Origin: an uncultured beta proteobacterium
Lineage (GTDB): Bacteria > Pseudomonadota > Gammaproteobacteria > Burkholderiales > Burkholderiaceae_C
Assembly: GCA_903822205.1 (NCBI GenBank)
Contig: CAIJOK010000144.1
Coordinates: 1-55,051, forward strand
Direction: 5' to 3'
DNA: 55,051 bases
Part shown: positions 25,601 to 54,821 of the stretch, piece after piece
Layout: each line of letters starts with the position of its first letter
Numbering within the stretch: position 1 is the stretch's first letter
Made by a program: the position numbers and the translations under genes
The notes under the pieces: model-generated
The model's database searches: none
Told to the model about the DNA's origin: nothing
Seen by the model: only the letters and a program-made list of their open reading frames with translations

Positions 25601-25812
25601 ACCTGGTGCGCAACCTTCGCCACAACCCCTATTGGGCCGATCTGCCGATCATCATGATCACGTCTCGCATTGCCCAAAAACACCGTGATTACGCACGTGA
25701 GCTTCAAGTCGATCATTACCTGGGCAAACCCTACCCTGAGGACCAACTGCTTGAACTCCTGCGCCAGTATTGCGCCGATACCACGGGTACCACGGCTGAT
25801 TCAGCCGATTAG
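19621..25812 (+). CDS. chpA: Chemosensory histidine kinase/response regulator ChpA (PilL)
   Basis: A 2063-residue multidomain CheA that phosphorylates PilG and PilH. An N-terminal helical FimL-like region (~1-600) is followed by three Hpt domains with intact His: H690 in FHTLKGSSR, H1055 in AHSLAGSS, H1298 in LHTLKGSAR. Then come dimerisation (~1440-1580), HATPase (HLLRNAVAHG, SDDGAGLNLD, GRGVGTDVVRTEV), CheW-like (~1750-1900) and receiver domains (~1935-2055, phospho-Asp D1984 in LSDIEMPRMDG). The Hpt domains are joined by long acidic Pro/Asp/Ala-rich linkers, one with a VDQ repeat and one with an AD repeat. Family members have up to eight phosphotransfer domains, so this is a mid-sized form. 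Confidence 0.95.
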   Translation: MQTSVVSVASVALVAPSDSRDAVLPDLGPMAWVLDELQKSLDGATKALRRFVRDAELARGSDIAALDTSHLRIARQQLHQAVGALEMVGLEIPAKMLRAMEALTQKFVQSPQSCSDIAAQKLERASFALIDYLFGLLKGRQTSSVALFPQYRSVLELLGSDRIHPADLWACNWHWADVPVPTSVAPLSYNDTVRTHIDTYVLNVVKTGHVPSAHAMHDISLGFAAAQTGLHERVFWCLAAAYFEAVATNRCPSDNYTKRAASQILAQYRSLAKGGSDVSERLLQDLLFFCSRATPDPTQADGTLVAVRAAYGLTTPSNARATDYETPQYGRFDPALLVQARKRIAALTETWSALSGGDTNRIKACADQFSLVADSITKLHPDGAELAASLSRSIDSIVQTGQAPSPALAMEVATAALYLEAAYDDMDSSDETLLVRCHHLALRLDRVIAGGQPEPLDTWMEELYRRVSDRQTMGSVVGELRTALGEVETALDAFFRQPDTPSSLHAVPGKLAQMRGVFSVLGLDQAALATLRMRNHVEQFWVDAPYAKADQFGVFEKLGNSLGALGFLVDMLGYQRELAKKLFVYDEDLGEFKFLTGRQKTPLVAPPAPPAFVLDFPDPPSGAAEVPSAAAVLSFVPPPPPDDEDDNQELREIFLEEATEVIQNGLLAISALAADPSDTDQQMTLRRAFHTLKGSSRMVGLTEFGEAAWSFEQLLNAWLPQQKPVSSDMLQLTQKAMDGFGRWVADIAANTDQRWAALPFRRAADSLRLDNAPMGLLLPEDTPPDIAPPPSDVSEAATPPQAPVVAVSDTMPTTGAMEDGDEDAQATVPGDLFFASVPSVLPVPIVTELLDFSQPGFMWPDLALPPPPESSPESPPTPTPATDQPMDQVDQVDQMAQVDQVDRETQEDQSSSQAQPQPVTTDEVDLSDLPLDFVLPDARDVSEQQSDSISSADATDADATDATVATSLTDAVEITDPSDADTTTSEDLDLNLDFAPDSRFAPDDKVIGTLRIGLALYNVYLNEAEEWSQRLLGELVLLSMQPRRPLSDAPVTWAHSLAGSSATVGFMELSGLARALEHALLHVQSRELGLSEHLPVFVQAAQNARHLLQQFAIGILESPEPALLSALRDILDIEPATAFAVDLDMTLAYDPVSHAGTGTEADADADADTHFADADNALPVIDLDIGFDLLWPDPAPSPVPAAVPDEPPDAPSDALPLVPPPAPVAVTPTMLANLAPVQPAPPLDSDELDAFDVLDIDLFPIFDEEAQELMPRLSAALRQWLAYPGDVTARHDVLRVLHTLKGSARLAGAMRLGEMAHHLESAALQIAADTATAPQIDPLLTRLDHLQSHLDTLRLMPIQSMVLPEAEPRLPETVDVLPASEQTELDPTTTPPDAATAAPVPELPTLPTSKASAAASRIPSTAPTVGTRRALSPTLRIRSNLLDRMVNQAGEVIITRTRLESRLGQLQGSLGDLSSSLDRLRTQLRDLELQSESQMQSRLAQTKDLAKSFDPLEFDRFTRVQELTRMMAESVHDVATLHRTLQQTTAGVEDDLIAQARQTRELQHDLLRTRMVEFESIAERLYGVVRQAAKDTGRQVKLDIMGGALEMDRSVLERMAPSFEHLLRNAVAHGIEDAPTRAAAGKPATGSISIILTHQGNDVSVSLSDDGAGLNLDLIRAKAIALGHIAPDQDLSDDQIGDLIFTPGFSTAARVSELAGRGVGTDVVRTEVHALGGRIELNTLRGQGTRFNLVLPLTTAVTQVVLLRIGDLVLGVPTNLVELVKRVPRAGLDTAYQSGHFMHDGHSLAFYWAGALLQMSSTSTDSATRSASVVICRSAGQQVAMHVDEVLGNREAVVKNLGPQLSRLPGLAGVTVLASGAVVLIYNPVALSTIYGDKARSFGRSLPVDSSVDALAQPPTHAAASFDPAHEVSADQPPLILVVDDSITVRRVTQRLLKREGYRVALANDGLHALEVLQNEKPAVVLSDIEMPRMDGFDLVRNLRHNPYWADLPIIMITSRIAQKHRDYARELQVDHYLGKPYPEDQLLELLRQYCADTTGTTADSAD
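22275..22332 (+). repeat. 9-bp repeat coding a VDQ linker in chpA
   Basis: Degenerate GATCAGGT(C/A/G) units encode MDQVDQVDQMAQVDQVDR in a disordered linker between Hpt domains 1 and 2. Confidence 0.85.
23101..23124 (+). repeat. Hexanucleotide repeat coding an Ala-Asp tract in chpA
   Basis: GCTGAT is repeated four times exactly, in the linker between Hpt domains 2 and 3. Two GGTACT units lie just upstream. Confidence 0.9.
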
Positions 25813-40628: not shown

Positions 40629-41726
40629 ATGTCCTTGATGTCCTTAACCTTTCCCCAAAAAAGAGCCTTGGTTTGGCTGATGCTGCTGGTGGGCACGGCT
40701 TACGTTTTGTGGCTGTTGGCCCCTGTGCTGACACCGTTTGTGGTGGCCGCCATTTTGGCCTATGCCCTGACCCCCTTGGTGGACCGGCTCACAGCCATTG
40801 GCCGGGGCCGGCTGCCTCGCGTTCTGGCTGTCACAGCCGTTTTGCTGGTGTTTATCGTGCTGGTGCTGGCCTTGGCTTTGCTGATCGTGCCAATTTTGCT
40901 CAAGCAATTGCCCCTGCTGCGCGCCCAGTTGCCCCCCTTGCTGGACCACCTGAGTACGCGGGTGCAGCCGGTGTTGGCGCAATTGGGTCTGCCGGTTGCG
41001 CTGGATGTTTCAAGTCTCAAGGCTTTTTTGATGGAGCACCTCAGTGCCAACCTGCAAGACAGCGTGGGGCCTTTGCTGGCATCGGTCAAACTGGGTGGCA
41101 GTGTGGCAATGTCTGTGCTGGGCAACGCCGTGCTGATCCCTGTCGCCTTGTTTTACTGGCTGCTGGAGTGGCATCGTCTGGTAGCCACCTTGCAGTCTCT
41201 GGTGCCGCAGCGCCTGCGCCCCTCTGTTGTGCGCTTTTGCCTGGAGTCTGACCTGGTGCTGGGGCAATACCTGCGTGGTCAGTTGATGGTCATGCTGGTG
41301 TTGGCGGTCTATTACAGCGTGGCGCTGGCGCTGTTTGGACTGGACTTGGCCCTGCCCATCGGGGTGCTGACCGGGCTGCTGATCGCTATACCCTATGTGG
41401 GGTTTGGGCTGGGCCTGATCTTGGCCACTTTGGCGGGTTTTCTTGAGTTTTCAACGCAAACGGGTCACGTCAGTGCGCTGGTCATGGTGGCGGTGGTCTA
41501 TGGCCTGGGGCAAGGGGTCGAAAGCCTGATCCTCACCCCCAAGCTGGTGGGTGACCGCATCGGTCTGCATCCGCTGGCGGTCATTTTTGCGCTGCTGGCG
41601 TTTGGACAGGTGCTGGGCATGGTGGGCATCCTGGTGGCGCTGCCGGTCAGTGCCGTGCTGCTGGTGGCCATGCGGCGCGTCCACCAGGCCTATTTGGACA
41701 GCAGCCTGTACAGGGACGCATCGTGA
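40629..41726 (+). CDS. AI-2E/PerM family permease
   Basis: A 365-residue polytopic inner-membrane protein. N-terminal helices (ALVWLMLLVGTAYVLWLLAPVLTPFVVAAILAYALTPLVDRL) lead to an amphipathic region, followed by C-terminal helices with GVLTGLLIAIPYVGFGLG and the family-typical LTPKLVGDRIGLHPLAVIFALLAFGQVLG...LVALPVSAVLLV. Members transport small molecules or Na+/H+; the substrate is unknown. Two ATGs (40629, 40638) come from a 9-bp duplication TTGATGTCC. In relatives hda usually follows; here an istB remnant does. Confidence 0.9.
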   Translation: MSLMSLTFPQKRALVWLMLLVGTAYVLWLLAPVLTPFVVAAILAYALTPLVDRLTAIGRGRLPRVLAVTAVLLVFIVLVLALALLIVPILLKQLPLLRAQLPPLLDHLSTRVQPVLAQLGLPVALDVSSLKAFLMEHLSANLQDSVGPLLASVKLGGSVAMSVLGNAVLIPVALFYWLLEWHRLVATLQSLVPQRLRPSVVRFCLESDLVLGQYLRGQLMVMLVLAVYYSVALALFGLDLALPIGVLTGLLIAIPYVGFGLGLILATLAGFLEFSTQTGHVSALVMVAVVYGLGQGVESLILTPKLVGDRIGLHPLAVIFALLAFGQVLGMVGILVALPVSAVLLVAMRRVHQAYLDSSLYRDAS

Positions 41727-41805
41727 TGCGGGTGAGACGCAGGTGACAGGCAGCATCATTCGGGGGCACTGCCTGCTGAGCCGATACAGTGGATGGTGAG
41801 TTCGA

Positions 41806-42009
41806 CCGCAGCGACTCGCCGGCCAAATTGAAGCGGTGATTGTTTTGAATCACCCGATCCCGAATCGCATCGGCAACAGTGGCATCGCCAATCCACGCAT
41901 GCCAGTGCTCAATGGGCAACTGGCTTGTGATGATGGTGGCCTTGTGGCGCAAGCGCATCAAAATCCAGCGCTCTACCACCTGCGCGGCATCACGGGTTGG
42001 TCGTGGCAA
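41806..42009 (-). pseudogene. IS21-family istB remnant
   Basis: The minus strand encodes QVVERWILMRLRHKATIITS, then QLPIEHWHAWIGDATVADAI and RDRVIQNNHRFNLAGESLR. This is the C-terminal third of an IstB/DnaC-type transposition helper ATPase. Walker A and B regions, istA and intact ends are absent. The frame then runs on into sequence antisense to the permease. It marks an old IS21 insertion/deletion at the edge of the accessory region. The following 42010-42192 holds no gene. Confidence 0.8.
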
Positions 42010-42192: not shown

Positions 42193-42402
42193 ATGCCCAT
42201 TGCGCCACCAGCTATCCACTACACCTGCACCGCCTGCGGCTGGTCCAAAACCGTATCACCGCGCAGCGATGCCCTGATGTTGGGCGACTATTATTCTGCA
42301 TGCCCCCAGTGTGACCATGAATCACTGACAGCCCGCCAAGCCAATGTGGCCGAGGTGGCGATTGGGCAGTTAGGCGATTTGCTCCAGCGCCTTTGGCGTT
42401 AA
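42193..42402 (+). CDS. Small zinc-ribbon protein
   Basis: A 69-residue protein with two CxxC pairs (YTCTACGW ... SACPQCDH), a likely zinc ribbon, and a C-terminal helix (VAEVAIGQLGDLLQRLWR). Function unknown. It lies 87 bp before the HerA-type ATPase gene in the same direction; a separate promoter for that gene is possible at 42447-42474. Confidence 0.7.
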   Translation: MPIAPPAIHYTCTACGWSKTVSPRSDALMLGDYYSACPQCDHESLTARQANVAEVAIGQLGDLLQRLWR

Positions 42403-42489: not shown

Positions 42490-45400
42490 ATGACACCTAA
42501 CAAACCCACCCAGACCAGTCTCAAAACCCAAACCACCGAATTGGCGTGGAATGCGCCCGCGTTTCATGCCATGACGCAGTTACCCAACCCGGGTGGCAGC
42601 GAAACCCGTTTTCGCCTGTTTCACGTCACCGAGATCGGTGAAGGCAAAGCCGGAGCCTACCGCCTGGCAATGGCCAATGTGATCGCCGGTATCAATGACC
42701 CGCGCTGCAAAGCCATCTACATTTTGTCCGGTACGCCAGAGGGCGTGGCTTTGTACATTGGCATTGCCAGCACCGAGCTTTCAGACGAAGCCCTGCATGA
42801 AATGGCCAAAACATTGCGCGCATCGTTTGAGGGTAACTTTTTGGGTGCCAAACTTGAAGACATCAAAAAAGGCAATGCGGCGGTCGATGCCATGATGGCC
42901 TCGTCCAAACATCTTGGCCGGATCACGGGTGTGCCCTCATTTAACGAAGATGCCAGCCATGTGGGCGATGAAGACTTTCAGGGTATTGAACGCCTGGCCA
43001 ACAGTCTGGTGGGCGAAACCTGGCAACTGATTGTGGTGGCCGAGCCTGGCACCGACGACGAAATTCGCGCAACACTGGACCACATTTACAAATTTTCAAC
43101 CGACTTATCGTCTCGTCAAAAACAATCCGTGCAACATTCTGAAAACACGGGCTGGAGCAAGACGGACACCAAGGGCACATCCACCAGTGATACCTACGGC
43201 ACAAATGTCTCGGATACTCGTAGCAAAAATGACGGTGGTAGCACCAGTACGGGCAAAAACTCTGGCACCAGTTCAGGGTCATCCAGCAGTCGCAGTGAGG
43301 GAACAAACTCCAGTGAAACCAAAACCTTCGGCACCAATGAATCTCGCACCAGTGGCACCAGTGATTCCAATACAAAAGGAAAGAGCGACTCGCTGTCACA
43401 AGGAACGACGGGCGGCAAGGGCCTGTCCTATACCAGTGAGCGCATTGACAAACGGGTGGAGGAGGTGCAAAAACATATCAGCGAAAACCTGATCACGCGA
43501 TTTCAGCAGGGTTTGAGTAAAGGTATGTTTCGCACCGCCCTGTACGTCAGCGCCAAAGAGCAAGCCACTTACGACCGCCTGACCCGAAGCGTTTTGTCCA
43601 TCTTTCAGGGCAATGAGTCCACCATGACCCCCCTGCGTTCGGAGAAACTGGCGGTCATATCCACAGGCTTGCCTTTATCTATTCGGCGCTATTCCCGCCA
43701 AAATGCTGACACCAGTGGTGCGCTGGTCTATAGTGTGCCGTTCGAGGCCGGTACACGCGAAGTGATGGGGGCCACCTGGCTGAGTACCAAAGAGTTGTCC
43801 CTGGTAGCGGGCTTGCCTGCCAAAGAATTACCCGGGATCAAAATACGCAAAAGCGTGGACTTTGCCTTGAATACGGCTGACATCACCGGTGCGGGGGACG
43901 TCTTGACCTTGGGGTGCATTATTCAGCATGGCCGAGAACTGCCCCACAAACAGGTGCATCTGCCATTGGCTGATTTGACCAAGCACGTATTTGTGACCGG
44001 TGTCACAGGTTCTGGCAAAACCACCACGTGCATGAAGCTGCTGATGGAATCCAAATTACCCTTCATGGTGATTGAACCTGCCAAAACCGAGTACCGCGCC
44101 CTGCATGCACTCGACGACCATATTGAATATTACATATTGGGGCGCGAAGACCTGACACCGTTTCGGCTCAATCCATTTGAGTTGGTGTCTCGGCAAGAAA
44201 GCCTGTCCGGCCATATTTCCACGCTCAATGCCACGCTGGGGGCTGTATTTCCAATGGAAGCGGCCATGCCGTATCTGGTGGAAGAGGCCATTATCAAAGC
44301 CTATAAAGTCAAAGGCTGGGATATTCACACCAACGATAATTTTTTGGTCGATGACCCCTGGGCTTTGGGTAGTGATGCCTGGCCCACCTTTGGCGACATG
44401 ATCGGAGAATTGGAGGGCATTATCAAATCCAAAGGCATGGGCAAAGAATTTGAAGAAAAATACCTGGGTTCGCTGGTAGGCCGGCTGACCAATCTGACGC
44501 TCGGTGTCAAAGGCCGCATGCTCAACACCCGCCACTCGCTTGATTTTGATCAGTTACTGGATACAAGGGTTGTGATCGAACTGGAAGAACTGAAAGATGA
44601 GCAAGACAAAGCCCTGTTCATGGGCCTCATTCTGACCCGCTTGGCCGAGTGCATGAAGCACCGTCACCGCCATACCCCCGCATTCCGACATCTCACGCTG
44701 GTCGAAGAAGCGCACCGCTTGCTGTCCCGCTCCGAGCCTGGCGACCCTGGTTCCAAGAAACTGGGTGTGGATACTTTTGCCAATCTGCTGGCCGAGGTGC
44801 GCAAATATGGCGAGGGGCTGATCATTGCCGACCAAATCCCCAATAAACTGGTGTCGGATGTGATTAAAAATACCCACACAAAAATCGTTCACCGACTATT
44901 TTCTGCCGACGACCGCAATACCATCGGCGATGCCATGGGTCTGTCCGACGAACAAAAAGATTTTTTGCCCTTGCTGCAAACCGGCGAAACGATTATGTAT
45001 TGCGGGGGATGGCATGCGCCGGTGTGGGTCAAAATTGAAGAAAAAGCCAAAACCGACCGACCAGAAATTGCCGAAGAAACCATGCAGGCCAAAGGTATCG
45101 CGCAACTGTGGGCGCAACGCAGCCGATTGTTTCCCAAACTCGCGGTACGCCCTGAAATGAGCAGCGGCGCGGTGTTAGCTTGTTTTGCCAGCGAGGGCAT
45201 CAAACTGATCAATATGCTGTTGGCGGTCAATGCCGGTATAGGCGATGCCAAACGTTCTGAATATGTCGTCAAGGTTCAGCAACGTTATGCCAAAAATTAT
45301 GTCGCATCAGACAAGCAGTCGGGTTTGGATGCGGCCACCAACGCACAATTGTTAAGCTGTTTGTTTTTTGATGTCTCAGGATTTACCAGCACGGATAAAA

Positions 45401-45546
45401 CAGAAGCCTTGATGCGCGAGGTATTGCCGGTTGCTTTTGAAACACTGGCTACCTCGGTGGAGGCTTTCAAAGCGTATTGGACTGTCAATCCGGGAAAATT
45501 GATTTTGCAAAATGACGTTCAGTTCAAGAAAATGGAATCTTTTTAA
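42490..45546 (+). CDS. HerA/DUF87-type ATPase with long Ser/Thr-rich linker
   Basis: 1018 residues. The N-terminal domain (~30-210; FRLFHVTEIGEGKAG, IYILSGTPEGVALYIGIAS) leads into a low-complexity Ser/Thr/Gly/Asn/Lys linker (214-315). A HerA/VirB4-like motor follows: Walker A GVTGSGKT (504-511), Walker B LTLVEEAH (735-742), then FANLLAEVRKYGEGLIIADQIPNKLVSDVIKNTHTKIVHRL, which holds the sensor/arginine-finger region of hexameric translocases. A C-terminal ~180-residue region is unrecognised. HerA-fold motors pump DNA or protein in conflict, repair and secretion systems. No TM segment is evident. A 17-bp gap to the next gene, which has AGGAG, argues for an operon. Confidence 0.85.
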   Translation: MTPNKPTQTSLKTQTTELAWNAPAFHAMTQLPNPGGSETRFRLFHVTEIGEGKAGAYRLAMANVIAGINDPRCKAIYILSGTPEGVALYIGIASTELSDEALHEMAKTLRASFEGNFLGAKLEDIKKGNAAVDAMMASSKHLGRITGVPSFNEDASHVGDEDFQGIERLANSLVGETWQLIVVAEPGTDDEIRATLDHIYKFSTDLSSRQKQSVQHSENTGWSKTDTKGTSTSDTYGTNVSDTRSKNDGGSTSTGKNSGTSSGSSSSRSEGTNSSETKTFGTNESRTSGTSDSNTKGKSDSLSQGTTGGKGLSYTSERIDKRVEEVQKHISENLITRFQQGLSKGMFRTALYVSAKEQATYDRLTRSVLSIFQGNESTMTPLRSEKLAVISTGLPLSIRRYSRQNADTSGALVYSVPFEAGTREVMGATWLSTKELSLVAGLPAKELPGIKIRKSVDFALNTADITGAGDVLTLGCIIQHGRELPHKQVHLPLADLTKHVFVTGVTGSGKTTTCMKLLMESKLPFMVIEPAKTEYRALHALDDHIEYYILGREDLTPFRLNPFELVSRQESLSGHISTLNATLGAVFPMEAAMPYLVEEAIIKAYKVKGWDIHTNDNFLVDDPWALGSDAWPTFGDMIGELEGIIKSKGMGKEFEEKYLGSLVGRLTNLTLGVKGRMLNTRHSLDFDQLLDTRVVIELEELKDEQDKALFMGLILTRLAECMKHRHRHTPAFRHLTLVEEAHRLLSRSEPGDPGSKKLGVDTFANLLAEVRKYGEGLIIADQIPNKLVSDVIKNTHTKIVHRLFSADDRNTIGDAMGLSDEQKDFLPLLQTGETIMYCGGWHAPVWVKIEEKAKTDRPEIAEETMQAKGIAQLWAQRSRLFPKLAVRPEMSSGAVLACFASEGIKLINMLLAVNAGIGDAKRSEYVVKVQQRYAKNYVASDKQSGLDAATNAQLLSCLFFDVSGFTSTDKTEALMREVLPVAFETLATSVEAFKAYWTVNPGKLILQNDVQFKKMESF

Positions 45547-45563
45547 TTGAAGGAGTGATTATC

Positions 45564-46244
45564 ATGGGATGGTTTAGCGATTGTTGTAGCAGTGTAGGTA
45601 GTTTCTTTAGCAGCGTGGGGAGTTCAATTTGCTCAGGTTTCAGCGCCGCAGCCAGTTGGTGTGGAGAGAAATTCAGTGCCATCGTGAATGCTGGAGTTGG
45701 CATACTCAGTAGCGTAGGCAGCGTGGCCGCTAATTTACTACAGGGCTTGGGCCTGTGGGGCAAAAAAGAAACCCCCGAGGACATAGGCGACAGAGCCTTT
45801 CAAGCGCATGAGCAGGGTATATTTCCTGACACGTTTGAGAACTTTGGTCAATACATGGACAGTCTGCGTAATTTTGATCTGGACCCCAAAAAGTCCGCAG
45901 AAAGTACGACCGAACAAAAAATATTCAAAGGGCTTGAAGTTGCAGGCAGGGCCTTGGAGGATAAATACAATGCGCCAACGGGCAGTATGGCCAACGTCTG
46001 GGTATTGGCCGCAGCCAATCCAGAATACTTTACATCGGACAGGTTTCAATCCATGTTGAACTCGGGTGTGGATATTGCTTCCGTTGTCGATTATTTTGAA
46101 GGAAAATTAGGTGGGGGCGAATCACTAGAGATTGAAGACCAACTGGTGGACATCGATCAACAAACGCATGCCGACAAAAGCGAAGAAGCAAGCCGTGAAG
46201 AAATTTACGCAGCCGTTGAAACTGCCAAAAATATCTTGAACTAA
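45564..46244 (+). CDS. Hydrophobic-N-terminus small protein A
   Basis: 226 residues. The N-terminal ~65 are Ser/Gly/Ala/Val/Cys-rich and hydrophobic (CCSSVGSFFSSVGSSICSGF ... AGVGILSSVGSVAANLLQGL), likely membrane-inserting or amphipathic. The C-terminal ~150 form a charged domain shared with the next gene: IGDRAFQAHEQGI, LDPKKSAE, LAAANPEYF, VVDYFEGKLGGGESLEIEDQLVDID. No known family. The ATG at 45564 is chosen because AGGAG (45551-45555) lies 8 nt upstream. The architecture suggests a membrane-active effector or anchor with a common recognition domain. Confidence 0.8.
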   Translation: MGWFSDCCSSVGSFFSSVGSSICSGFSAAASWCGEKFSAIVNAGVGILSSVGSVAANLLQGLGLWGKKETPEDIGDRAFQAHEQGIFPDTFENFGQYMDSLRNFDLDPKKSAESTTEQKIFKGLEVAGRALEDKYNAPTGSMANVWVLAAANPEYFTSDRFQSMLNSGVDIASVVDYFEGKLGGGESLEIEDQLVDIDQQTHADKSEEASREEIYAAVETAKNILN

Positions 46245-46257
46245 GGAGCCATAAATC

Positions 46258-46935
46258 ATGATTTTCCCTTTCATTGCCGTCGCATTTTCCGCCATTGCTT
46301 CGGCAGTCGCCAGTATCGGCCCGGCTGTGGCGGGGTTTTGTGCCAATGTGCTACCCAGATTGGCCCCTTTGCTTGCAAAGGGTATGGACGCACTCAGGGT
46401 GGTTGAGAAAATTGCCGACACGGTTTCTCACGCGATGGGTATTTTTACCGGTAAAGATACCGCTGGTGACGTGGGCGACCGCGCCCTTCAGGCATCAGAC
46501 CAAGGCATTACGCCCGACCAGTTTGAAAATCATGCCGACTACATGGATGCACTGCGTCATATTGACTTGGACCCGGACAAATCGGCAAAACTGACCGATG
46601 CCCAAAAGATCGTATCGGGACTGGCGGTGGCTGGGCGCGGTCTGGACGATAAATTTGGCAGCCCCGAGGGTACGATGGGCAATCTGTTTTGGCTGGCTGC
46701 GGCCAATCCAGATTATTTTAATGCCGACAAATTAACCCAGTACCTTAAAACAGGCCAGGATATTATGTCCATCGTTGATTATTTTGATGGCAAACTGGGT
46801 GGGGGTGAATCACTTGAAGTGGAGGATGATCTCGTTCAATTGGACAAGAGCATACAACCCGACGCAGATGAAAAATCCATTCGCCAACAAATCTATGCGG
46901 CGGCTGATACGGTGCAAGGGGCGGGCCGTGAGTGA
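46258..46935 (+). CDS. Hydrophobic-N-terminus small protein B (paralogue of A)
   Basis: 225 residues, 13 bp after its paralogue, with AGGAG 10 nt before the ATG. The N-terminus is a different hydrophobic stretch (FPFIAVAFSAIASAVASIGPAVAGFCANVLPRLAPLLAKG). From VGDRALQASDQGI onward it follows protein A closely (DLDPDKSAKLTDAQKI, LAAANPDYF, IVDYFDGKLGGGESLEVEDDLVQLD), by eye somewhat over half identical. Conserved C-terminal domain with variable hydrophobic head; function unknown. Confidence 0.8.
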   Translation: MIFPFIAVAFSAIASAVASIGPAVAGFCANVLPRLAPLLAKGMDALRVVEKIADTVSHAMGIFTGKDTAGDVGDRALQASDQGITPDQFENHADYMDALRHIDLDPDKSAKLTDAQKIVSGLAVAGRGLDDKFGSPEGTMGNLFWLAAANPDYFNADKLTQYLKTGQDIMSIVDYFDGKLGGGESLEVEDDLVQLDKSIQPDADEKSIRQQIYAAADTVQGAGRE

Positions 46936-47006
46936 ATGGCATAGCGGTCGTTATTGTTGTAACCCCAATGCATCATGCCATTATCCCTGCGAGGGCAATA
47001 AAAACA

Positions 47007-47142
47007 TCGTCATTCCCGCGAAGTGTCACCATTTAGACACGCAGCCTAAATACCGTCATTCCCGCGAAGGCGGGAATCCAGTGTATTTTTGTTTTTTTTG
47101 GATACCAAGACAGTCTGGATTCCCGCCTTCGCGGGAATGACG
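47007..47142. repeat. Palindromic repeat element (28-bp inverted repeats)
   Basis: CGTCATTCCCGCGAAGGCGG and its continuation at 47054-47081 is the exact reverse complement of 47115-47142. A partial extra left arm lies at 47009-47024. The GTCATTCCCGCGAAGGCGGGAATCCAG sequence, read in pieces, is a well-known dispersed proteobacterial repeat. It occupies the only large gap (279 bp) of the cluster. The loop contains a T-run, so it could attenuate transcription between the small proteins and the downstream genes. Confidence 0.9.
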
Positions 47143-47214
47143 ATTATGGGGGTATAAACACCTACACCCTTATCGTCCAGTTTTTAACTCCTCACATCTC
47201 ACCACAGGCCATCT

Positions 47215-48048
47215 ATGAAACTTGCAATTTTTGTTCAACACCAAAAAGTTGTTTGCTACAACTGCGATCCATCCGGTCAATGGGAACGCCGACGCATCAA
47301 AGGTGAAACGTCGGTGGACATCCCCCCAGATAAAGCCGCCGTCGTGCTGCGGCAAATCATCAAAGACCAAAGCGACCTGATCAACCAGCAAAACGACTTG
47401 CGCGATGTTGAGATTCACCTGATCTACGGCGTGGCCGATGTGGGGGCGATGGCAGAGGCCCCCAAAATTTTGGCCGAACTACAGTGCATCACCTGGCAAA
47501 TTCTGAGGTTAGAGCCTCTGCTGGAGCGTGCCGCCGTCGCACGGGGTCTGACTCAGGCACTACCTCTGGACGGTGACGACAAGTGGCTGAGAACTGTGCT
47601 GCTTCCTATTTTGGCCAGCACGTTTGCTTATTCCAACCATGCCTTTCAAGCCGAAGAGGCACGGGCGCGGCACGAGCATGAGGAAACCATGGACACCCTG
47701 CGTGCCGATGTGCAGGCCAAGCATCAAGAGGTGGCACGACTGCAAGCCCGCATCAATGCCCTGCAACTGCCGGGTGTCGAGCATTTGCTGGTCTATCTGC
47801 CTGCCATTTACCGCAACTTTTGGGGCGTGGTGCGGCCTGACGAATTGGCTCTGCTGGCGGGTACGCTGACGGTTCCTGTGATCGCGTCGCCCTATCCTGA
47901 CCCTTCACCAGACACCGTGGTGATGCTGAAACGCCGGTTTTTGCAACTGCCGGAACTTGACCGCGAGCGCGTGCTGGGGTTTTGCCGCGAGCTACCGCAC
48001 CGGCTGGATGTGCGTGTGGAAATGAAAGATTTATTTGGGGAGATTTGA
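47215..48048 (+). CDS. Unrecognised cluster protein with coiled coil
   Basis: 277 residues, soluble. The N-terminal part begins MKLAIFVQHQKVVCYNCDPS and contains DLRDVEIHLIYGVADVGA. The middle has a charged coiled coil (AEEARARHEHEETMDTLRAD to ARLQARINAL, ~145-185). The C-terminal region has FWGVVRPDELALLAGTL and RRFLQLPELDRERVLGFCREL. I recognise no family. It abuts the next gene with no spacer and so is presumably co-translated. It is a candidate adaptor between the ATPase and the Hsp70-like proteins. Confidence 0.7.
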   Translation: MKLAIFVQHQKVVCYNCDPSGQWERRRIKGETSVDIPPDKAAVVLRQIIKDQSDLINQQNDLRDVEIHLIYGVADVGAMAEAPKILAELQCITWQILRLEPLLERAAVARGLTQALPLDGDDKWLRTVLLPILASTFAYSNHAFQAEEARARHEHEETMDTLRADVQAKHQEVARLQARINALQLPGVEHLLVYLPAIYRNFWGVVRPDELALLAGTLTVPVIASPYPDPSPDTVVMLKRRFLQLPELDRERVLGFCRELPHRLDVRVEMKDLFGEI

Positions 48049-48840
48049 ATGGAGACCGACATGGACAAAGATGAACGTAAGCGGCTTGAACGCTTGCAAG
48101 AAGATGGCCCCAAAGGGGTGAAAGGTTGGGGGTTGGTGGATTTGACCTATCCCGACCTCCAATTGCTGTTGGTGGCCGACCCAAAGATTCGAAAGCTGAT
48201 CCGCCAGATCATCCAACCCATGTTGGCTGCGCCAGCGGGAGACAAGGCCACAGCCGCAGCATCTGACGAGAATGTGTCGGAGACAGAGACTGTCAGTCGT
48301 CAGGTGGAACCTCCCTCCCCCCCGCCCCCAATCATCAAGATTGAAAAGGTGATTGAATCGGTGATCCAAAAAGTCCCCTACGAGGTGCGTGTGGAGGTGC
48401 CGGTACATGACCCACTGCGCGGCCAGTTGGCACCCGAGATCAAGCTGCTTCAGGCTGTCAAGGCCGATGCCGAATTGGCTGGCAATTGGCTATGGGCGGA
48501 CGAGAGCGAAGGGCGGCAACTGGTGCGGTTGATGGCCGTGTTATCCGACTGGGACGAGGTGCTTAGCCTGTGGGGCCGTTTGGCTGACCGCTGCAAACGC
48601 GATCAACGCGCAGTCACAACCACCGAGCTGGCCATTTTGCAAGCCGCGCTGGCGCTGCATAACCTGCGATGGCGTGACCGTGCGGCCCAATGCGTGCAGG
48701 CCCAGATTGGTGCAGCGTTTCACCACGAAACGATGGAGCGCGGCACACCCAAGGGCAACACCGTAGCCGAGGTCTGGTTACTTGGTCTGGACAACGCCGC
48801 CGGGCAAGTCCAAAAAAAGCCAGTCGTCAAAACCCACTGA
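48049..48840 (+). CDS. Unrecognised cluster protein with Pro-rich hinge
   Basis: 263 residues starting directly after the previous stop; an in-frame ATG at 48061 is an alternative. A basic N-terminus is followed by a disordered Ala/Ser/Pro segment (about 60-95, with EPPSPPPP). A predicted beta/helix stretch (IIKIEKVIESVIQKVPYEVRV) and a helical C-terminal domain (VRLMAVLSDWDEVLSLWGRLADRC, ILQAALALHNLRWRDRAAQC) complete it. No family recognised. It precedes the first Hsp70-like gene by 21 bp. Confidence 0.7.
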   Translation: METDMDKDERKRLERLQEDGPKGVKGWGLVDLTYPDLQLLLVADPKIRKLIRQIIQPMLAAPAGDKATAAASDENVSETETVSRQVEPPSPPPPIIKIEKVIESVIQKVPYEVRVEVPVHDPLRGQLAPEIKLLQAVKADAELAGNWLWADESEGRQLVRLMAVLSDWDEVLSLWGRLADRCKRDQRAVTTTELAILQAALALHNLRWRDRAAQCVQAQIGAAFHHETMERGTPKGNTVAEVWLLGLDNAAGQVQKKPVVKTH

Positions 48841-48861
48841 CCTCAACAGAAAGACAAAACC

Positions 48862-51540
48862 ATGGATGCCACCATCACCCAATTGATCAACCAGTCAGCG
48901 GTGCTCAAAGAACTCGATGCTCGATCGGGGCTGATCAGGCAGGCCTTGCGGGCCAACTTGACGGCGGCCATTAAAGCGATCGAGCAACAGACTTTTTGGC
49001 ATGTCAAAACGCCCCAACATGCCGCTGATGCTACGCCATGGCTATTTGAAAGCAAAACCGGCAAGCTGTGGTACGCCGTGTCCAAAGACGAAAAGTTTGC
49101 TACACAGTACACACCTGATGGGGGCCGTCAACAGCTCAAAACTCTGCAAGCCGTCGGCAAGGCTTTGTGGCGCTTGCCAGAACCCGAAGAATTGCGAGCC
49201 TTTGCCTGGGACAGCTCACCACCTTGGCGGTCGGGGGGTAATGGAGCATTTTTGACTCAGGTTTTGTGGCTGGCCAGCACCGGTGGCTTGAATTTGAACC
49301 AAAACAACACCATCATCTGGCACCCCTCTGGGTATCTCCTCGCCATCGCCGATAACTTTTGCGGCAAGACACCCCAATTTATGGCCCATGCCGCCAGCCA
49401 GCAGTGGGTGGTGACTGCGCAGGGTGATGCCAAGAACACCAATCTGCTCAAGGATTTTTACGCCACGGCCCGTGATGTGCGCCCCATATTCAAAGCCATC
49501 GACACCCACAGCGCCAAGTTGCCTGCGCTGGAGCCAGCAGACTTTACCGACCCCAACAAAGGTCTCTGGGAGTTTTGGGGACTGGATGCCGCCGAGCTTG
49601 AGGCACTGGGCCTGCGCGCCCGCAACCCTGCCGATGACGTGCAGCAAGGCATGGTAGCGATCGACTTTGGCACCAGCAGCACGGTGGTGGCGTTTGAGCA
49701 AAACGGCGTTGGGCAACTGCTGCGCATCGGTGTCACCGACTTTTGGGAAACCCCAAAGCCCTCGCATTACGAAAACCCCACGGTGCTGGAACTGGTCGAT
49801 CTGGCCGCTTTGCTCAAACCGTGGCAAAGCGTGGCCTACCGACCCGATGTGGCCTGGAACGATGTGCGCTGTTCGCATGAAGCCCTGCACAACTTTCGCA
49901 ACAACCAGACCAAGCCCGAGGTCGTGGCCAGCGTACTGACCAAAATCAAACAATGGGCGCTGCGTGAGGGCGACGGCACACGGGTGCGGCTAACCGACCA
50001 GACCGGCCGCATCGAACACGAACTGGCCCCGCTGACACTGCGCCAGCCGGTCAAGGGCAAGCCACTGACCGTCAGCCAGGCCGATCCGTTTGACCCCGTC
50101 GAGCTGTACGCCTGGTTTTTGGGCCTGACCATCAACTGGCGCAGACGCGGTATTTTTTTGCGCTACTACATGAGCTTTCCGGTGGACTACCCGCGTGAGG
50201 TCAAGGACAAAATTTTGGCCTCGTTCAGGCGCGGCCTGCAACGCAGCCTGCCCGCCACGCTGGTGACTCAGCCCGTTTTTGAACGGTTCACGGTTGAAGA
50301 GCGGGCCTCTGAGCCTGCTGCTTATGCCGCCATCGCTCTGCCTACGCTGGGCATCGTTCCGACCGACGAGGGCGTGGCCTACGCGGTGTTTGACTTTGGC
50401 GGCGGAACGACAGACTTTGACTTTGGCTACTACCGCCGCGCCACCGAGACCGAAGAGCGGGCCGGTGTCGAGCAGGTGCTGGAGCATTTTGGCAATGGCG
50501 GCGACAAGTTTTTAGGCGGCGAGAACCTGCTGGATCACCTGGCCTACCTCACTTTTTGCCACAACAAAGAGGTCTGCCGCAGCAAACATATCGCCTTCAC
50601 CAAACCGCTTGACGCGGTGGACTTCAATGGCTCAGAGATGTTTTTGGAACGCACCCAGGCCGCAGCCACCAACATGCTGATGCTGGTAGCGCGCCTGCGA
50701 CCGTTTTGGGAAATCGGCAAGGAGGGCAACAATACAGGGAGTGAAAAGATCGACCTGATCGACCGCGAAGGCAAAAAAGTTCCCTGCGAGTTCACCGTGC
50801 CCTACCCAGAGCTAAAGACTTTTTTGCAGACCCGCATTGAGCAGGGCACGCACAACTTTTTTACCACCCTCAAAAAGGCCTTTGGCAACGAGCTGCCGAC
50901 GCAGGTGCAAGTGCTGTTGGCCGGCAATGCCAGCCGGTCCAGCATTGTGCTGGGCCTGTTTGGTCTGCTGCCTGACGACCATGAACTGGCCGTTCTGCAA
51001 GATCGCACCAAGGCATTCCTCTGCACCCTGTTTGATGAGAACGGCCCAAAGTTCATTGCCCATGCCCCGCTGGCCGCAGACGACAACGATGTCAATCGCC
51101 CCACCTGCAAAACCGGCGTGGCGCTGGGCTTGTTGGAGCTTTGCCCTGGCAGCGCCACCCGTGTGATCAACCATGCAGTCAAAAACGCCACAGGCGACGC
51201 GCCGTTTCAGCACTATGTGGGGCGCATACGGCAAAAGAAATTTCACGTCAGCCTGAGCCAGTGCGGGGGCTATCAGCAGTGGGTGGAGCTGGGGCCGGTG
51301 TCGGACGACCGGGTGTTCAAGCTGTTTCACACCCAGGCCGCCCGTGCCCTCAGTGGCGACATGGCTTTGGGCGATGCCGCGCTGATCCTCAAAACGCTTG
51401 AATTTGCCGGTGATACCAACTGTCTGCATGTCTTTGTGCGACCCGTCAAACCGCACGAGATCGAGGTCTGCACTGCGGCCTCGCTGGAGACTGCGGCGCA
51501 AGGCCAGATTGGCAATAGCCGCGTTTTGAAATTAATTTAA
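48862..51540 (+). CDS. Hsp70/actin-fold ATPase A with N-terminal DUF1566-like domain
   Basis: 892 residues. An Hsp70/actin-type nucleotide-binding core is clear: phosphate 1 IDFGTSSTVVAF (D268), phosphate 2 VFDFGGGTTDFDFG (D511), adenosine motif VLLAGNASRSSIV (684 on). It lacks a recognisable DnaK substrate-binding domain; the ~130-residue C-terminus after the core is its own. Residues ~55-165 contain WLFESKTGKLWYAV, WRLPEPEELRAFAW and WHPSGYLLAI, resembling DUF1566 (Lcl-like) domains. The next gene is a paralogue lacking this domain. It is probably a nucleotide-dependent switch or chaperone of the cluster. Confidence 0.85.
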   Translation: MDATITQLINQSAVLKELDARSGLIRQALRANLTAAIKAIEQQTFWHVKTPQHAADATPWLFESKTGKLWYAVSKDEKFATQYTPDGGRQQLKTLQAVGKALWRLPEPEELRAFAWDSSPPWRSGGNGAFLTQVLWLASTGGLNLNQNNTIIWHPSGYLLAIADNFCGKTPQFMAHAASQQWVVTAQGDAKNTNLLKDFYATARDVRPIFKAIDTHSAKLPALEPADFTDPNKGLWEFWGLDAAELEALGLRARNPADDVQQGMVAIDFGTSSTVVAFEQNGVGQLLRIGVTDFWETPKPSHYENPTVLELVDLAALLKPWQSVAYRPDVAWNDVRCSHEALHNFRNNQTKPEVVASVLTKIKQWALREGDGTRVRLTDQTGRIEHELAPLTLRQPVKGKPLTVSQADPFDPVELYAWFLGLTINWRRRGIFLRYYMSFPVDYPREVKDKILASFRRGLQRSLPATLVTQPVFERFTVEERASEPAAYAAIALPTLGIVPTDEGVAYAVFDFGGGTTDFDFGYYRRATETEERAGVEQVLEHFGNGGDKFLGGENLLDHLAYLTFCHNKEVCRSKHIAFTKPLDAVDFNGSEMFLERTQAAATNMLMLVARLRPFWEIGKEGNNTGSEKIDLIDREGKKVPCEFTVPYPELKTFLQTRIEQGTHNFFTTLKKAFGNELPTQVQVLLAGNASRSSIVLGLFGLLPDDHELAVLQDRTKAFLCTLFDENGPKFIAHAPLAADDNDVNRPTCKTGVALGLLELCPGSATRVINHAVKNATGDAPFQHYVGRIRQKKFHVSLSQCGGYQQWVELGPVSDDRVFKLFHTQAARALSGDMALGDAALILKTLEFAGDTNCLHVFVRPVKPHEIEVCTAASLETAAQGQIGNSRVLKLI

Positions 51541-51552
51541 GGGAGGTGTGAG

Positions 51553-53859
51553 ATGGCGAGTGTGTTTTCTTCTTCGGATTTCAGTTCGATTCTGGCAGCA
51601 TTGGATGCGCTATCGACAGCAAAAACAGGCGCGATGCCCGTCAAACCTGCTGAGGTTGCTGCAAATATTGCAAAGCTTGCTACAAATATTGCAAAACCTG
51701 TCAAACAACAAGAAGCCGCTGAGGTGCTGGAGGTCTTGAAAAAACGCTACAGCGCATGGATACCGCCCGATGTGGCGGTGATGTCTGCTGCTGATCTACG
51801 AGCTAAGTTTCAGGCTATCGACACCCGCAGCGCCAGGCTGCCGTTGCTGGATGCCACCCAGTTCACCGACCCCAACAAAGGGATGTGGGAATTTTGGGGC
51901 CTGAACGCCCTGGGATTGCAACAGTTGGGTGTGCGTGCCCGTAACCCGGTGGCCGATCTGCGTGACTGCAATGTGGCGATCGACTTTGGCACCAGCAGCA
52001 CGGTGGTGGCATTCGACGACAACGGCATCCACAAACTGCTGCGCATCGGTGTCACCGATTTTTTGGAGGCCAGCAAAACCGCCCACTACGAAAACCCGAC
52101 CGTGCTGGAGTTTGTCGATTTTGCGGCCATGCTAAACCCTTGGCGCAGCGAGGCCTACCGCCCGGGTGTGCTGTGGGACGATGTGCGTTGCTCGCATGAG
52201 GCACTGCACAACTTTCGCAACAACGAAACCAAGCCCGAGGTGGTCGCCAGTGTGCTGACCAAAATCAAACAATGGGCACTGCGTGAGGGCAACGGTACGC
52301 GGCTGCGGGTAACCGACCAAACGCACCGCGACGAGCGTGAACTGGACGCACTGACTCTGCGCCAGCCGGTCAAGGGCCAGCCACTGACCGTCAGCCAGTC
52401 CGACCCGTTTGACCCCGTCGAGCTGTACGCCTGGTTTTTGGGATTGACCATCAACTGGCGTGGACGGGGCCTGTTTTTGCGCTACTACATGACCTTTCCG
52501 GTGGCTTACCCCAAGGATGTCAAAGAAAAAGTGCTGGCCTCGTTCAGGCGCGGTTTGCAGCGCAGCCTGCCCGCCAGCCTGATCCATCAGCCCGAGTTTG
52601 AGCAGTTCACGGTTGAAGAGCGGGCCAGCGAACCTGCGGCCTACGCTGCGACTGCCCTGCGCTGTTTGGGCATTGAGCCTACCCCGCAGGGCGTGGCCTA
52701 CGCGGTGTTTGACTTTGGCGGCGGCACCACCGACTTTGATTTTGGCTTCTACCGGCTGCCCACCGAGACCGAGGCTGACGACGAAGGCTGGGAAACCGTG
52801 TTTGAGCATTTTGGCAGCGGTGGCGATGCTTTTTTAGGCGGCGAGAATTTGTTGGAGCATCTGGCTTACCGCAGTTTTTGTCACAACATCGAGGTGTGCC
52901 GCAAAAACAAAATCAGCTTTACCAAGCCGCTGGACGCGCAGGATTTTCCTGGCTCCGAGCTGTTTTTGGAACGCACCCAGGCCGCAACCACCAATTCGCT
53001 GATGTTGATGGCGCGGCTGAGAACATTTTGGGAAACCGGCGAGAGCAGCAACAAAACCGGCATCAAAAAGATAGACCTGCTGGGGCGCGATGGCAAAAAG
53101 CTGCCGTGCGAACTGTTGATCCCGTTGGATGCACTGAACCAGTTTTTGCAGGAACGTATCGAGGTGGGTGTGCGCAACTTTTATGCAGCGCTCAAAAAAG
53201 CCTTTGCGGATCAAACCCCTGAGCAGGTACAGGTGCTGTTAGCCGGCAACGCCAGCCGGTCCAAAATTGTGCAAGGTTTTTTTGGTTTGCTCGATGTCAA
53301 AGACCCATTGCAGGCGATCAAAAGTCGCACCGATGAATTTGTGGCCGGCTTGTTTGGCCAGCAACCGCCACAGTTCATCGTCCATCCGCCCCTGGCAGCG
53401 GATGAATCGGATGTCTATCGCCCCACCGGCAAAACCGGCGTGGCCCTGGGACTGCTGCGGCTGTGCCCCGGCAGCCCGACGCTGGTGATCAACCATGCTG
53501 AGCGCAACGTGATGGGCGATGCCCCGTTTTTGCACTACCTTGGGCGCATTCGACTGGGCAAGTTTCACGTCTGCCTGCCGCAAGGTGCGCCCTACCAACA
53601 GTGGGTGGAGCTGGGGCCGGTGCGTGAGCGGGTGTTTGTTCTGGTGCATAGCCAGGAGCCACGCGCTTTGCTGGGTGACATGAAAGAGGGTGACATCGGC
53701 CTGCAACAAAAGCGACTTGATCTGGCGGGCAACACCAACGGCCTGCGCGTCTATGGCCGCGCCGTGTCGCCGCATGAGATCGACTTGTGTACGGCAGCAT
53801 CAGCCGTCGCCGCTGAAAACGGGCAGATCGAAAACCAGCGCCGCATCAGGCTGGGGTAA
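51553..53859 (+). CDS. Hsp70/actin-fold ATPase B (tandem paralogue)
   Basis: 768 residues, 12 bp after its paralogue, with GGGAGGTG before the ATG. Core motifs: IDFGTSSTVVAF (D144), VFDFGGGTTDFDFG (D387), VLLAGNASRSKIV (561 on). From FTDPNKGMWEFWGL onward it follows protein A almost colinearly, with long near-identical DNA stretches. The DUF1566-like domain is missing, replaced by ~85 residues including a 21-bp DNA repeat (51656-51697) encoding an NIAK motif. Both copies keep all ATP-site residues, so both are probably active. Confidence 0.85.
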   Translation: MASVFSSSDFSSILAALDALSTAKTGAMPVKPAEVAANIAKLATNIAKPVKQQEAAEVLEVLKKRYSAWIPPDVAVMSAADLRAKFQAIDTRSARLPLLDATQFTDPNKGMWEFWGLNALGLQQLGVRARNPVADLRDCNVAIDFGTSSTVVAFDDNGIHKLLRIGVTDFLEASKTAHYENPTVLEFVDFAAMLNPWRSEAYRPGVLWDDVRCSHEALHNFRNNETKPEVVASVLTKIKQWALREGNGTRLRVTDQTHRDERELDALTLRQPVKGQPLTVSQSDPFDPVELYAWFLGLTINWRGRGLFLRYYMTFPVAYPKDVKEKVLASFRRGLQRSLPASLIHQPEFEQFTVEERASEPAAYAATALRCLGIEPTPQGVAYAVFDFGGGTTDFDFGFYRLPTETEADDEGWETVFEHFGSGGDAFLGGENLLEHLAYRSFCHNIEVCRKNKISFTKPLDAQDFPGSELFLERTQAATTNSLMLMARLRTFWETGESSNKTGIKKIDLLGRDGKKLPCELLIPLDALNQFLQERIEVGVRNFYAALKKAFADQTPEQVQVLLAGNASRSKIVQGFFGLLDVKDPLQAIKSRTDEFVAGLFGQQPPQFIVHPPLAADESDVYRPTGKTGVALGLLRLCPGSPTLVINHAERNVMGDAPFLHYLGRIRLGKFHVCLPQGAPYQQWVELGPVRERVFVLVHSQEPRALLGDMKEGDIGLQQKRLDLAGNTNGLRVYGRAVSPHEIDLCTAASAVAAENGQIENQRRIRLG

Positions 53860-53909: not shown

Positions 53910-54821
53910 ATGACACCACCTGAAACATTCGACACCAGCAACCCTGTCCTGCTTGACCCCAAAAATGATTTTGTCTTCAAAAAGCTATTTGCCAGTTCGC
54001 CCGAGTTGCTGGCAAACCTGATCAACGCCGTGCGTCCCAACGCCCGTCCGGTCACGGTGATTGAAGTACTCAATCCCAACATCACGCCCGAAGACCTGGC
54101 TGGCAAATTCATCGTTTTGGATATTTTGGCGGAAGATGATCAGGGACTGCGTTACAACATCGAAATGCAGGTGCGCCGCCACAAAGCCTACAGTGCTCGC
54201 AGTATTTACTATTTGGCACACACCTTGATCGGGCAATTGGGCGGTGGGCAGAATTACCTTCAACTCAAAGGTGTGATCGGCATTCACCTGCTGGACTATG
54301 ACCTTTTTAAGGCTCCAAGGCAAGACAAGCAGGCCGTGTGGTGCTTTGAAATGCGTGACCACTTGCAGCCTGATGTCAAACTGGGTGATGAACTGCAACT
54401 CATCATCATTGAGATGCGAAAAGCCGACCGGCTCAAATTGGCATCTCCCGCACTGGCTGATTTATTGACATTTTTTGAACATTGGAAAGAGGATTCCATC
54501 ATGAACCAAATGACATCCATCCCGATACAGCAAGCTATGGCGCAGCTCAAGGCACTAAGCGCTGATGCGGCGACACGCCAAACAGCGTGGAATCGTGAAC
54601 GTGCGCTGATCAGCGAAATCACTGAAAGACTCGCCGAACGAGAAGAAGGCAAGCTGGAAACCCAAATCACGATGCTGCACAAACTGCTTGCCAAACGCTT
54701 TGGTCACCTGCCTGAAGACACACTCGAGCGAATTAACAGAGCCTCACCGGAACAACTTGAATACTGGATTTTGGCGGTGATTGATGCGCCTTCGCTTGCA
54801 GCCGTGTTTGTTGAGTACTGA
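53910..54821 (+). CDS. Rpn-family PD-(D/E)XK nuclease / transposase-like
   Basis: 303 residues of the recombination-promoting nuclease (Rpn, PD-(D/E)XK transposase-like) family: LLDPKNDFVFKKLFA at the N-terminus, then the catalytic D71 in FIVLDILAEDD and E85/Q87 in YNIEMQV, with SARSIYYLAHTLIGQL after. The C-terminus has the DUF4351-type helical tail (ITMLHKLLAKRFGHLPEDTLERINRASPEQLEYWILAVIDA). It lies 50 bp after the Hsp70 pair, is common in mobile regions, and may be a neighbour rather than a component. Confidence 0.88.
   Translation: MTPPETFDTSNPVLLDPKNDFVFKKLFASSPELLANLINAVRPNARPVTVIEVLNPNITPEDLAGKFIVLDILAEDDQGLRYNIEMQVRRHKAYSARSIYYLAHTLIGQLGGGQNYLQLKGVIGIHLLDYDLFKAPRQDKQAVWCFEMRDHLQPDVKLGDELQLIIIEMRKADRLKLASPALADLLTFFEHWKEDSIMNQMTSIPIQQAMAQLKALSADAATRQTAWNRERALISEITERLAEREEGKLETQITMLHKLLAKRFGHLPEDTLERINRASPEQLEYWILAVIDAPSLAAVFVEY

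What the first reader, a model, noticed from the sequence alone, without database searches (positions are those of the whole stretch)
42490..53859. Candidate undescribed system: HerA-type ATPase, paired hydrophobic proteins and tandem Hsp70-like ATPases
Seen: seven co-directional genes with spacings of 17, 13, 279 (filled by a repeat element), 0, 21 and 12 bp. They encode a HerA/DUF87 motor, two paralogous small proteins with different hydrophobic heads, two unrecognised proteins, and two Hsp70/actin-fold ATPases with intact nucleotide sites. Known: HerA-type motors (Sir2-HerA, DUF4297-HerA) and Hsp70-like proteins both occur in conflict systems, and the region is flanked by an istB remnant and an Rpn nuclease. 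Inference: a nucleotide-driven defence or membrane-acting system in which the Hsp70-like pair gates the hydrophobic proteins and the HerA motor acts on DNA or protein. I do not recognise this gene set as a named system.
Basis: partly seen in the sequence, partly recalled or inferred. Interest (0 to 1): 0.9.

Follow-up and report, generated by a model that had tools for sequence, protein, structure and literature searches.

The report
Hsp70-guarded HerA motor with membrane-like cargo
A mobile bacterial gene cluster pairs Hsp70-like proteins with a HerA-type pump and its small hydrophobic partner, a set conserved across several phyla that looks like an undescribed toxin-handling conflict or defence system, although nothing about its function has been tested in the laboratory.

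Summary
In detail: seven co-directional genes at the stated places, probably preceded by an eighth (zinc ribbon, 42193-42402). HerA, small protein, 277-aa, 263-aa and Hsp70 homologues recur in order on an Acinetobacter plasmid and in Azonexus, Ignatzschineria, Chromatium and Pseudomonas saxonica; a reordered or partial core recurs in Bacillota, Bacteroidota and Campylobacterota. In 398 genomes of the phylum, HerA and the small protein occur in the same four, all of which carry the Hsp70.

The HerA plus small-protein pair is partly known as an extension of type III-A CoCoNuTs; nine paper searches found no description of the Hsp70-based set. Two comparisons suggest a function. Some relatives of this HerA have a nuclease toxin gene directly 3', where the small hydrophobic protein sits here. 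And the 263-aa/Hsp70 pair also occurs beside a WXG100/FtsK/HNH-toxin module and in operons with VgrG-type genes.

Best reading (inferred): the HerA motor loads or translocates the membrane-active small protein, held in check by Hsp70-like and coiled-coil partners. Phage defence or bacterial rivalry remains open. The tandem Hsp70 pair is a local duplication, not essential.

The parts
42193..42402 (+). small zinc-ribbon-like protein (69 aa), probable first gene of the cluster
   Evidence: homologues upstream of HerA in L035 (1.5e-17) and L021 (2.7e-4, with the L035 protein as query), another in the own-genome locus L140 (9.3e-6)
42490..45546 (+). HerA-family motor, 1018 aa: N-terminal domain, Ser/Thr/Gly-rich insert near aa 206-310, Walker A at aa 504, HerA-type ATPase
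   Evidence: PADLOC HerA 9.2e-19; alignment A5; insert and Walker A
45564..46244 (+). small helical protein A (226 aa) with hydrophobic MGWFS... head; the ORF caller starts it 9 bp upstream at a GTG (45555)
   Evidence: head/body comparison
46258..46935 (+). small helical protein B (225 aa), paralogue of A with a different hydrophobic head
   Evidence: AlphaFold2 model pLDDT 89.6, pTM 0.86, all helical; hydrophobic head
46936..47214 (.). spacer with a genome-wide palindromic repeat (matches at 47058-47077 and 47119-47138)
   Evidence: not part of the mechanism
47215..48048 (+). 277-aa protein: N-terminal actin/RNase H-type half-domain, coiled coil, C-terminal helical part
48049..48840 (+). 263-aa partner of the Hsp70-like proteins; some relatives carry a long coiled coil (seen by eye)
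   Evidence: 27 ORFs in 24 loci; 23 of 27 directly beside an Hsp70-like gene
48862..51540 (+). Hsp70-like ATPase a (892 aa), with an N-terminal extension
   Evidence: motifs intact; family profile to DnaK 3e-23
51553..53859 (+). Hsp70-like ATPase b (768 aa), sister of a
   Evidence: 69% identical over the shared part; sisters in tree
41647..42009 (-). IstB (IS21) remnant flanking the cluster
   Evidence: PF01695 3.8e-14
53910..54821 (+). Rpn-family PD-(D/E)XK nuclease/transposase, flanking, not a conserved member
   Evidence: clustered with nothing

Best explanation
A mobile conflict module. A HerA-family motor (hexameric by analogy) handles a dedicated protein cargo, the small all-helical protein with a hydrophobic head, which is most likely a membrane-active toxin or effector. 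Hsp70-like ATPases, with the 263-aa partner and the 277-aa half-actin coiled-coil protein, form a chaperone-like platform that keeps cargo and motor inactive until a trigger, then releases them so that the motor pushes the cargo into or through a membrane. Shown: gene set, conservation, nucleotide motifs, predicted folds, HerA/small-protein pairing, and nuclease toxin genes in the same place in some relatives. Inferred: protein cargo, membrane action, gating by Hsp70, nature of the trigger.
For: HerA and the small protein occur in the same 4 of 398 genomes, all four carrying the Hsp70. In the 14 Hsp70-linked HerA loci with readable sequence beyond HerA, the small protein follows in 14. In 4 of 9 plasmid regions that hold HerA relatives the next gene is a nuclease toxin (LHH or WHH/Colicin-DNase), with an annotated SMI1/KNR4 gene behind it in 3 of those 4; these four HerAs align with the window's over 851-948 positions at 27-28% identity and have a similar Ser/Thr/Gly-rich stretch (46-56% in 80 aa, window 66%). 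The 263-aa/Hsp70 pair also sits beside a WXG100-like, WHH/Colicin-DNase toxin, SMI1 and FtsK gene set on a Helicobacter plasmid and in four selenomonad loci with VgrG-type genes, three of which also have DUF4280. Heads are hydrophobic and mostly poor in charge. Distances of HerA, small protein, 263-aa and Hsp70 correlate at 0.75-0.90. Context: type I R-M, kinase/VWA/PP2C triad, WYL, CoCoNuT.
Confidence: 0.45

Rival explanations
1. DNA-directed defence: the HerA motor translocates invading DNA, and the other proteins sense or hold it, as in nuclease-HerA systems.
For: The motor's named matches are HerA and CedD, a DNA-translocating ATPase (9.2e-19; 2.7e-22, below cut-off); its matches among solved structures are HerA or DUF87-type ATPases; R-M genes adjoin L035. 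I raised this from 0.20 to 0.22 after adding the CedD match.
Against: No nuclease or NADase found in the conserved set; some relatives sit beside colicin-type toxins; the constant partner is a hydrophobic helical protein.
Confidence: 0.22
2. Contact or secretion weapon: the small protein or associated toxins are exported to rival cells, and the Hsp70 platform is a secretion chaperone.
For: Next-gene nuclease toxins with SMI1/KNR4 genes; WXG100/FtsK/HNH toxin and VgrG/DUF4280 beside the same Hsp70 pair.
Against: No immunity gene recognised next to the small protein; no outer-membrane or channel component in the window cluster; R-M and CoCoNuT neighbours fit defence better.
Confidence: 0.22
3. 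Stress or proteostasis module with no conflict role.
For: Hsp70-like proteins of this family occur in many genomes without HerA (40 of 44).
Against: Patchy: 1 of 41 genomes of the genus; plasmid copies; toxin and defence neighbours.
Confidence: 0.1

Closest known systems
[quoted passage not shown]
   Same: The Photobacterium damselae locus L025 carries a HerA 36% identical to the window's over 853 aa, followed by a homologue of the small helical protein; the paper describes an ATPase with a variable insertion and a small helical protein.
   Different: The window cluster has no recognised McrB GTPase, DUF2357 protein or TerY-P gene; it has separate Hsp70-like, 277-aa and 263-aa proteins. The Hsp70-like profile does not match the Photobacterium DUF2357 protein.
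Unnamed WYL/dynamin/HerA/HNH operons on plasmids (E. coli, Lactococcus, Treponema; Exiguobacterium without dynamin)
   Same: Homologous HerA with Ser/Thr/Gly-rich stretch, 27-28% identity over 851-948 positions.
   Different: Nuclease toxin, in 3 of 4 with a SMI1/KNR4 gene, in place of the small protein; dynamins in place of Hsp70.
T7SS-like FtsK/EssC-WXG100 modules (PMC3482391 passages; CoCoNuT extension, PMC11090510)
   Same: FtsK/HerA-superfamily motor beside small helical substrates; one such module on a Helicobacter plasmid sits beside the same Hsp70/263-aa pair.
   Different: No WXG100 protein or EssC recognised in the window cluster.
Sir2-HerA and DUF4297-HerA defence systems
   Same: HerA-type motor.
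   Different: No Sir2 or DUF4297 partner found.
GTPase-centred conflict systems with HSP70 (PMC7159879, passages)
   Same: Hsp70-family protein as a component of a conflict system; dynamin-family genes adjoin this Hsp70 family in L033, L059 and L060 (Pfam for L059).
   Different: Those use TRAFAC GTPases, tubulins or GrpE/DnaJ; the one mention of HerA found there is in the reference list.

Membership tests
Type III-A CoCoNuT | EccE3-HerA ATPase with small helical protein | tested here: met
   homologous pair in the Photobacterium CoCoNuT-type locus; the EccE3 resemblance itself was not tested
Type III-A CoCoNuT | McrB-type GTPase and DUF2357/McrC protein | tested here: not met
   no such hit in the seven proteins, Rpn or zinc ribbon (Pfam)
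Type III-A CoCoNuT | TerY-P triad in the operon | tested here: not met
   none in the window cluster; a kinase/VWA/PP2C triad lies beside the relative L029
Nuclease/NADase-HerA defence systems | HerA-type ATPase | tested here: met
   PADLOC HerA 9.2e-19
Nuclease/NADase-HerA defence systems | Sir2, DUF4297 or NurA partner | tested here: not met
   no such hit among the cluster proteins
Hsp70 superfamily | actin-type nucleotide-binding domain with phosphate and adenosine motifs | tested here: met
   DnaK profile match 3e-23
DnaK-type chaperone | substrate-binding domain and GrpE/DnaJ partners | tested here: inconclusive
   PDB profile match covers the nucleotide-binding part only; Pfam gives no HSP70 hit for the two window proteins
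Type VII secretion | WXG100 substrates and EssC motor | tested here: not met
   none among the cluster proteins
Conjugation/type IV secretion | relaxase and mating-pair genes beside the motor | tested here: not met
   only sub-threshold TrwB, TraD and VirB4-type hits to the motor's ATPase region and no other parts among the cluster proteins; the rest of the window was not scanned

The most novel reading that the evidence does not exclude
A family of Hsp70-like proteins with a dedicated 263-aa partner forms a reusable chaperone chassis that bacteria plug into unrelated toxin-handling machines: a HerA motor with a membrane-active small protein, a FtsK/WXG100 module with an HNH toxin, and VgrG/PAAR-like injection genes. 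The same hydrophobic MGFWSS-type head also occurs in a Zorya-like operon of the same genome, so the head may be a shared membrane-inserting or motor-recognised signal used by several defence systems.
Probability: 0.35. Interest if true: 0.88.

Novelty: new variant of a known kind. Interest (0 to 1): 0.7.

Why it matters
If right, it gives a role for Hsp70-like proteins as gatekeepers of toxin-type cargo in bacterial conflict, suggests what the EccE3-HerA plus small-protein extension of CoCoNuTs may carry, and links three export machines through one chaperone pair. It also names a small set of testable proteins: the small proteins, the 263-aa and 277-aa proteins and the two Hsp70-like proteins have no hit above a curated cut-off in Pfam or NCBIfam and none in PADLOC.

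Tried and rejected

In one search, L038's shorter Hsp70 ORF and weaker hits were left out, and L138 and L139 were labelled HerA-linked although their HerA lies on another contig. Many loci end at contig ends. My ORF caller is simple and starts may be wrong (as in L021). The head scan left out 17 duplicate loci and missed many family members, so it is specific rather than sensitive.
Full report
What is there. The window holds seven co-directional genes from 42490 to 53859, with spacings of 17, 13, 279, 0, 21 and 12 bp. A zinc-ribbon-like ORF at 42193-42402 probably starts the cluster: its homologues precede HerA in Pseudomonas saxonica (1.5e-17) and Acinetobacter (2.7e-4 to the Pseudomonas protein). 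The 279-bp gap holds a palindromic repeat with 55 matches in the genome and means nothing for function. An IstB remnant and an Rpn gene flank the cluster.

Conservation. The five protein families recur in the order HerA, small protein, 277-aa, 263-aa, Hsp70 on a plasmid of Acinetobacter piscicola and in L028, L029, L030 and L035; in the Bacillota and Bacteroidota loci with HerA, an Hsp70 gene directly precedes HerA. Of 53 loci with an Hsp70 of this family, 16 have HerA; many of the rest end early, and others are different settings. In the 14 Hsp70-linked HerA loci with readable sequence beyond HerA the small protein follows in 14, in Acinetobacter after a 78-aa ORF that has the same head; L038, L044 and L061 end within or just after HerA and could not be tested. 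Of 27 copies of the 263-aa family, 23 lie directly beside an Hsp70 gene; that sample was chosen by Hsp70 or HerA, so it does not show how often the 263-aa gene occurs alone. In 398 genomes of the phylum, the small protein is in 4 (E up to 1e-3), HerA in the same 4 (E up to 1e-40), Hsp70 in 44 including these 4 (E up to 1e-30); three of the four are of one family, so the independent events are few. In the genus only 1 of 41 genomes has the Hsp70, which fits acquisition by transfer. Pairwise distances of HerA, small protein and Hsp70 (11 loci), and of these with the 263-aa protein (9 loci), correlate at 0.75 to 0.90 (permutation p 0.001 or less); shared host ancestry can add to this.

Hsp70 tree. 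HerA linkage (26 of 67 rows) is scattered over the tree with 11 changes, at least 8 of them forced by well-supported branches; the label 'none' includes loci that end early, so some changes may be artefacts. Nine loci have two rows in the tree: the two are sisters in six (window, L021, L029, L039, L058, L024), near-identical but grouped with a third row in L137, and apart in L043 and L068. In the window the pair is therefore a local duplication (or kept alike by gene conversion), and L028, L030 and L035 show one copy.

What the neighbours say. This is the main argument for mechanism. Nine plasmid regions with HerA relatives were viewed (L021, fetched through its Hsp70, and L025, L026, L027, L152-L156), of 88 records with a match. 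The next gene is the small protein in L025 and, after the 78-aa head-bearing ORF, in L021. In L026, L027, L152 and L153 it is a nuclease toxin (LHH 1.2e-25; WHH 1e-15; Colicin-DNase 5.2e-25 and 2.1e-34), with a SMI1/KNR4 gene annotated behind it in L026, L152 and L153. In L154, L155 and L156 the next gene is uncharacterised. So nuclease toxins can occupy the place of the small protein. Separately, the 263-aa/Hsp70 pair lies beside a toxin module on a Helicobacter plasmid (WXG100-like at 4.8e-5, below cut-off; WHH/Colicin-DNase toxin and FtsK_SpoIIIE at 3.6e-38; SMI1 as annotated). It also lies in co-directional runs, with gaps of 9-10 bp after Hsp70 in L064 and L067 and about 300 bp in L050, with genes that carry VgrG-type domains in the selenomonad loci L046, L050, L064 and L067, and with DUF4280 genes in L050, L064 and L067 (the L067 hit below cut-off) and in Ureibacillus L037. 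DUF4280 as PAAR-like is recalled, not from a call. Other partners are dynamin-family genes in L033, L059 and L060 (Pfam for L059), a kinase/VWA/PP2C triad in L029 and a type I R-M system in L035, and WYL regulators in L021 and beside the toxin-type HerA loci L027 and L153.

A second locus in the same genome (contig C57) encodes a 442-aa protein with the same MGFWSS head between an IetA-like AAA ATPase and ZorA-like and ZorB-like proteins (3.2e-29, 5.4e-12 and 1.8e-17 to PADLOC). A rule-based scan of 1.85 Mb of fetched loci returned 17 hits: nine in the small-protein family (two of them in one gene), this protein, and seven that I judge to be chance frames. A same-genus relative keeps the head; a family-level relative (L148) has a different start of the head.

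Mechanism. Most likely the HerA motor handles the small protein as cargo and the Hsp70-like, 263-aa and 277-aa proteins restrain and release it; membrane action is inferred from the hydrophobic head. Only anatomy and co-occurrence are shown. The lack of a recognised immunity gene and of a channel, and the motor's resemblance to DNA-handling ATPases, are real weaknesses. A DNA-directed role and an export weapon remain possible.

Known or new. The HerA plus small-protein pair matches the third extension of type III-A CoCoNuTs as read in PMC11090510 section 10, whose authors suggested conjugation or secretion. Passages of PMC7159879, PMC12839542 and PMC3482391 describe related conflict systems but, in what I saw, not this set; other papers were seen only as search listings. 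Nine paper searches found no description; most subscription papers are outside that library. I call it a new variant of a known kind.

Noticed in passing
G000:C57:820-5277 (locus L140): Zorya-like operon of the same genome: AAA (IetA-like), 442-aa protein with the same MGFWSS-type head, ZorA-like and ZorB-like genes; same-genus relative in L147.
   Followed up: partly
L021:8593-8829: 78-aa ORF on the Acinetobacter plasmid that shares only the hydrophobic head with the small protein next to it.
   Followed up: partly
L142, L143, L144, L145, L032, L034: Forty of 44 Hsp70-positive genomes in the phylum survey have no HerA at the threshold used; the four sampled (L142-L145) group with Magnetococcales loci in the tree and show no 263-aa or HerA gene in about 20 kb.
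   Followed up: partly
L026, L027, L153: Unnamed plasmid operon of two dynamin-family proteins, HerA-like motor and nuclease toxin, with SMI1/KNR4 in L026 and L153 and a WYL gene upstream in L027 and L153; worth its own study.
   Followed up: partly
L022:5100-13810: Helicobacter plasmid with 263-aa/Hsp70 homologues directly before a WXG100-like, WHH nuclease toxin, SMI1 and FtsK gene set.
   Followed up: partly
window 19621-25812: 2063-aa ORF, not examined.
   Followed up: no
L058:7407-8889: Two tandem paralogous proteins of about 250 aa lie between the 263-aa and Hsp70 genes in a Campylobacteraceae locus.
   Followed up: no
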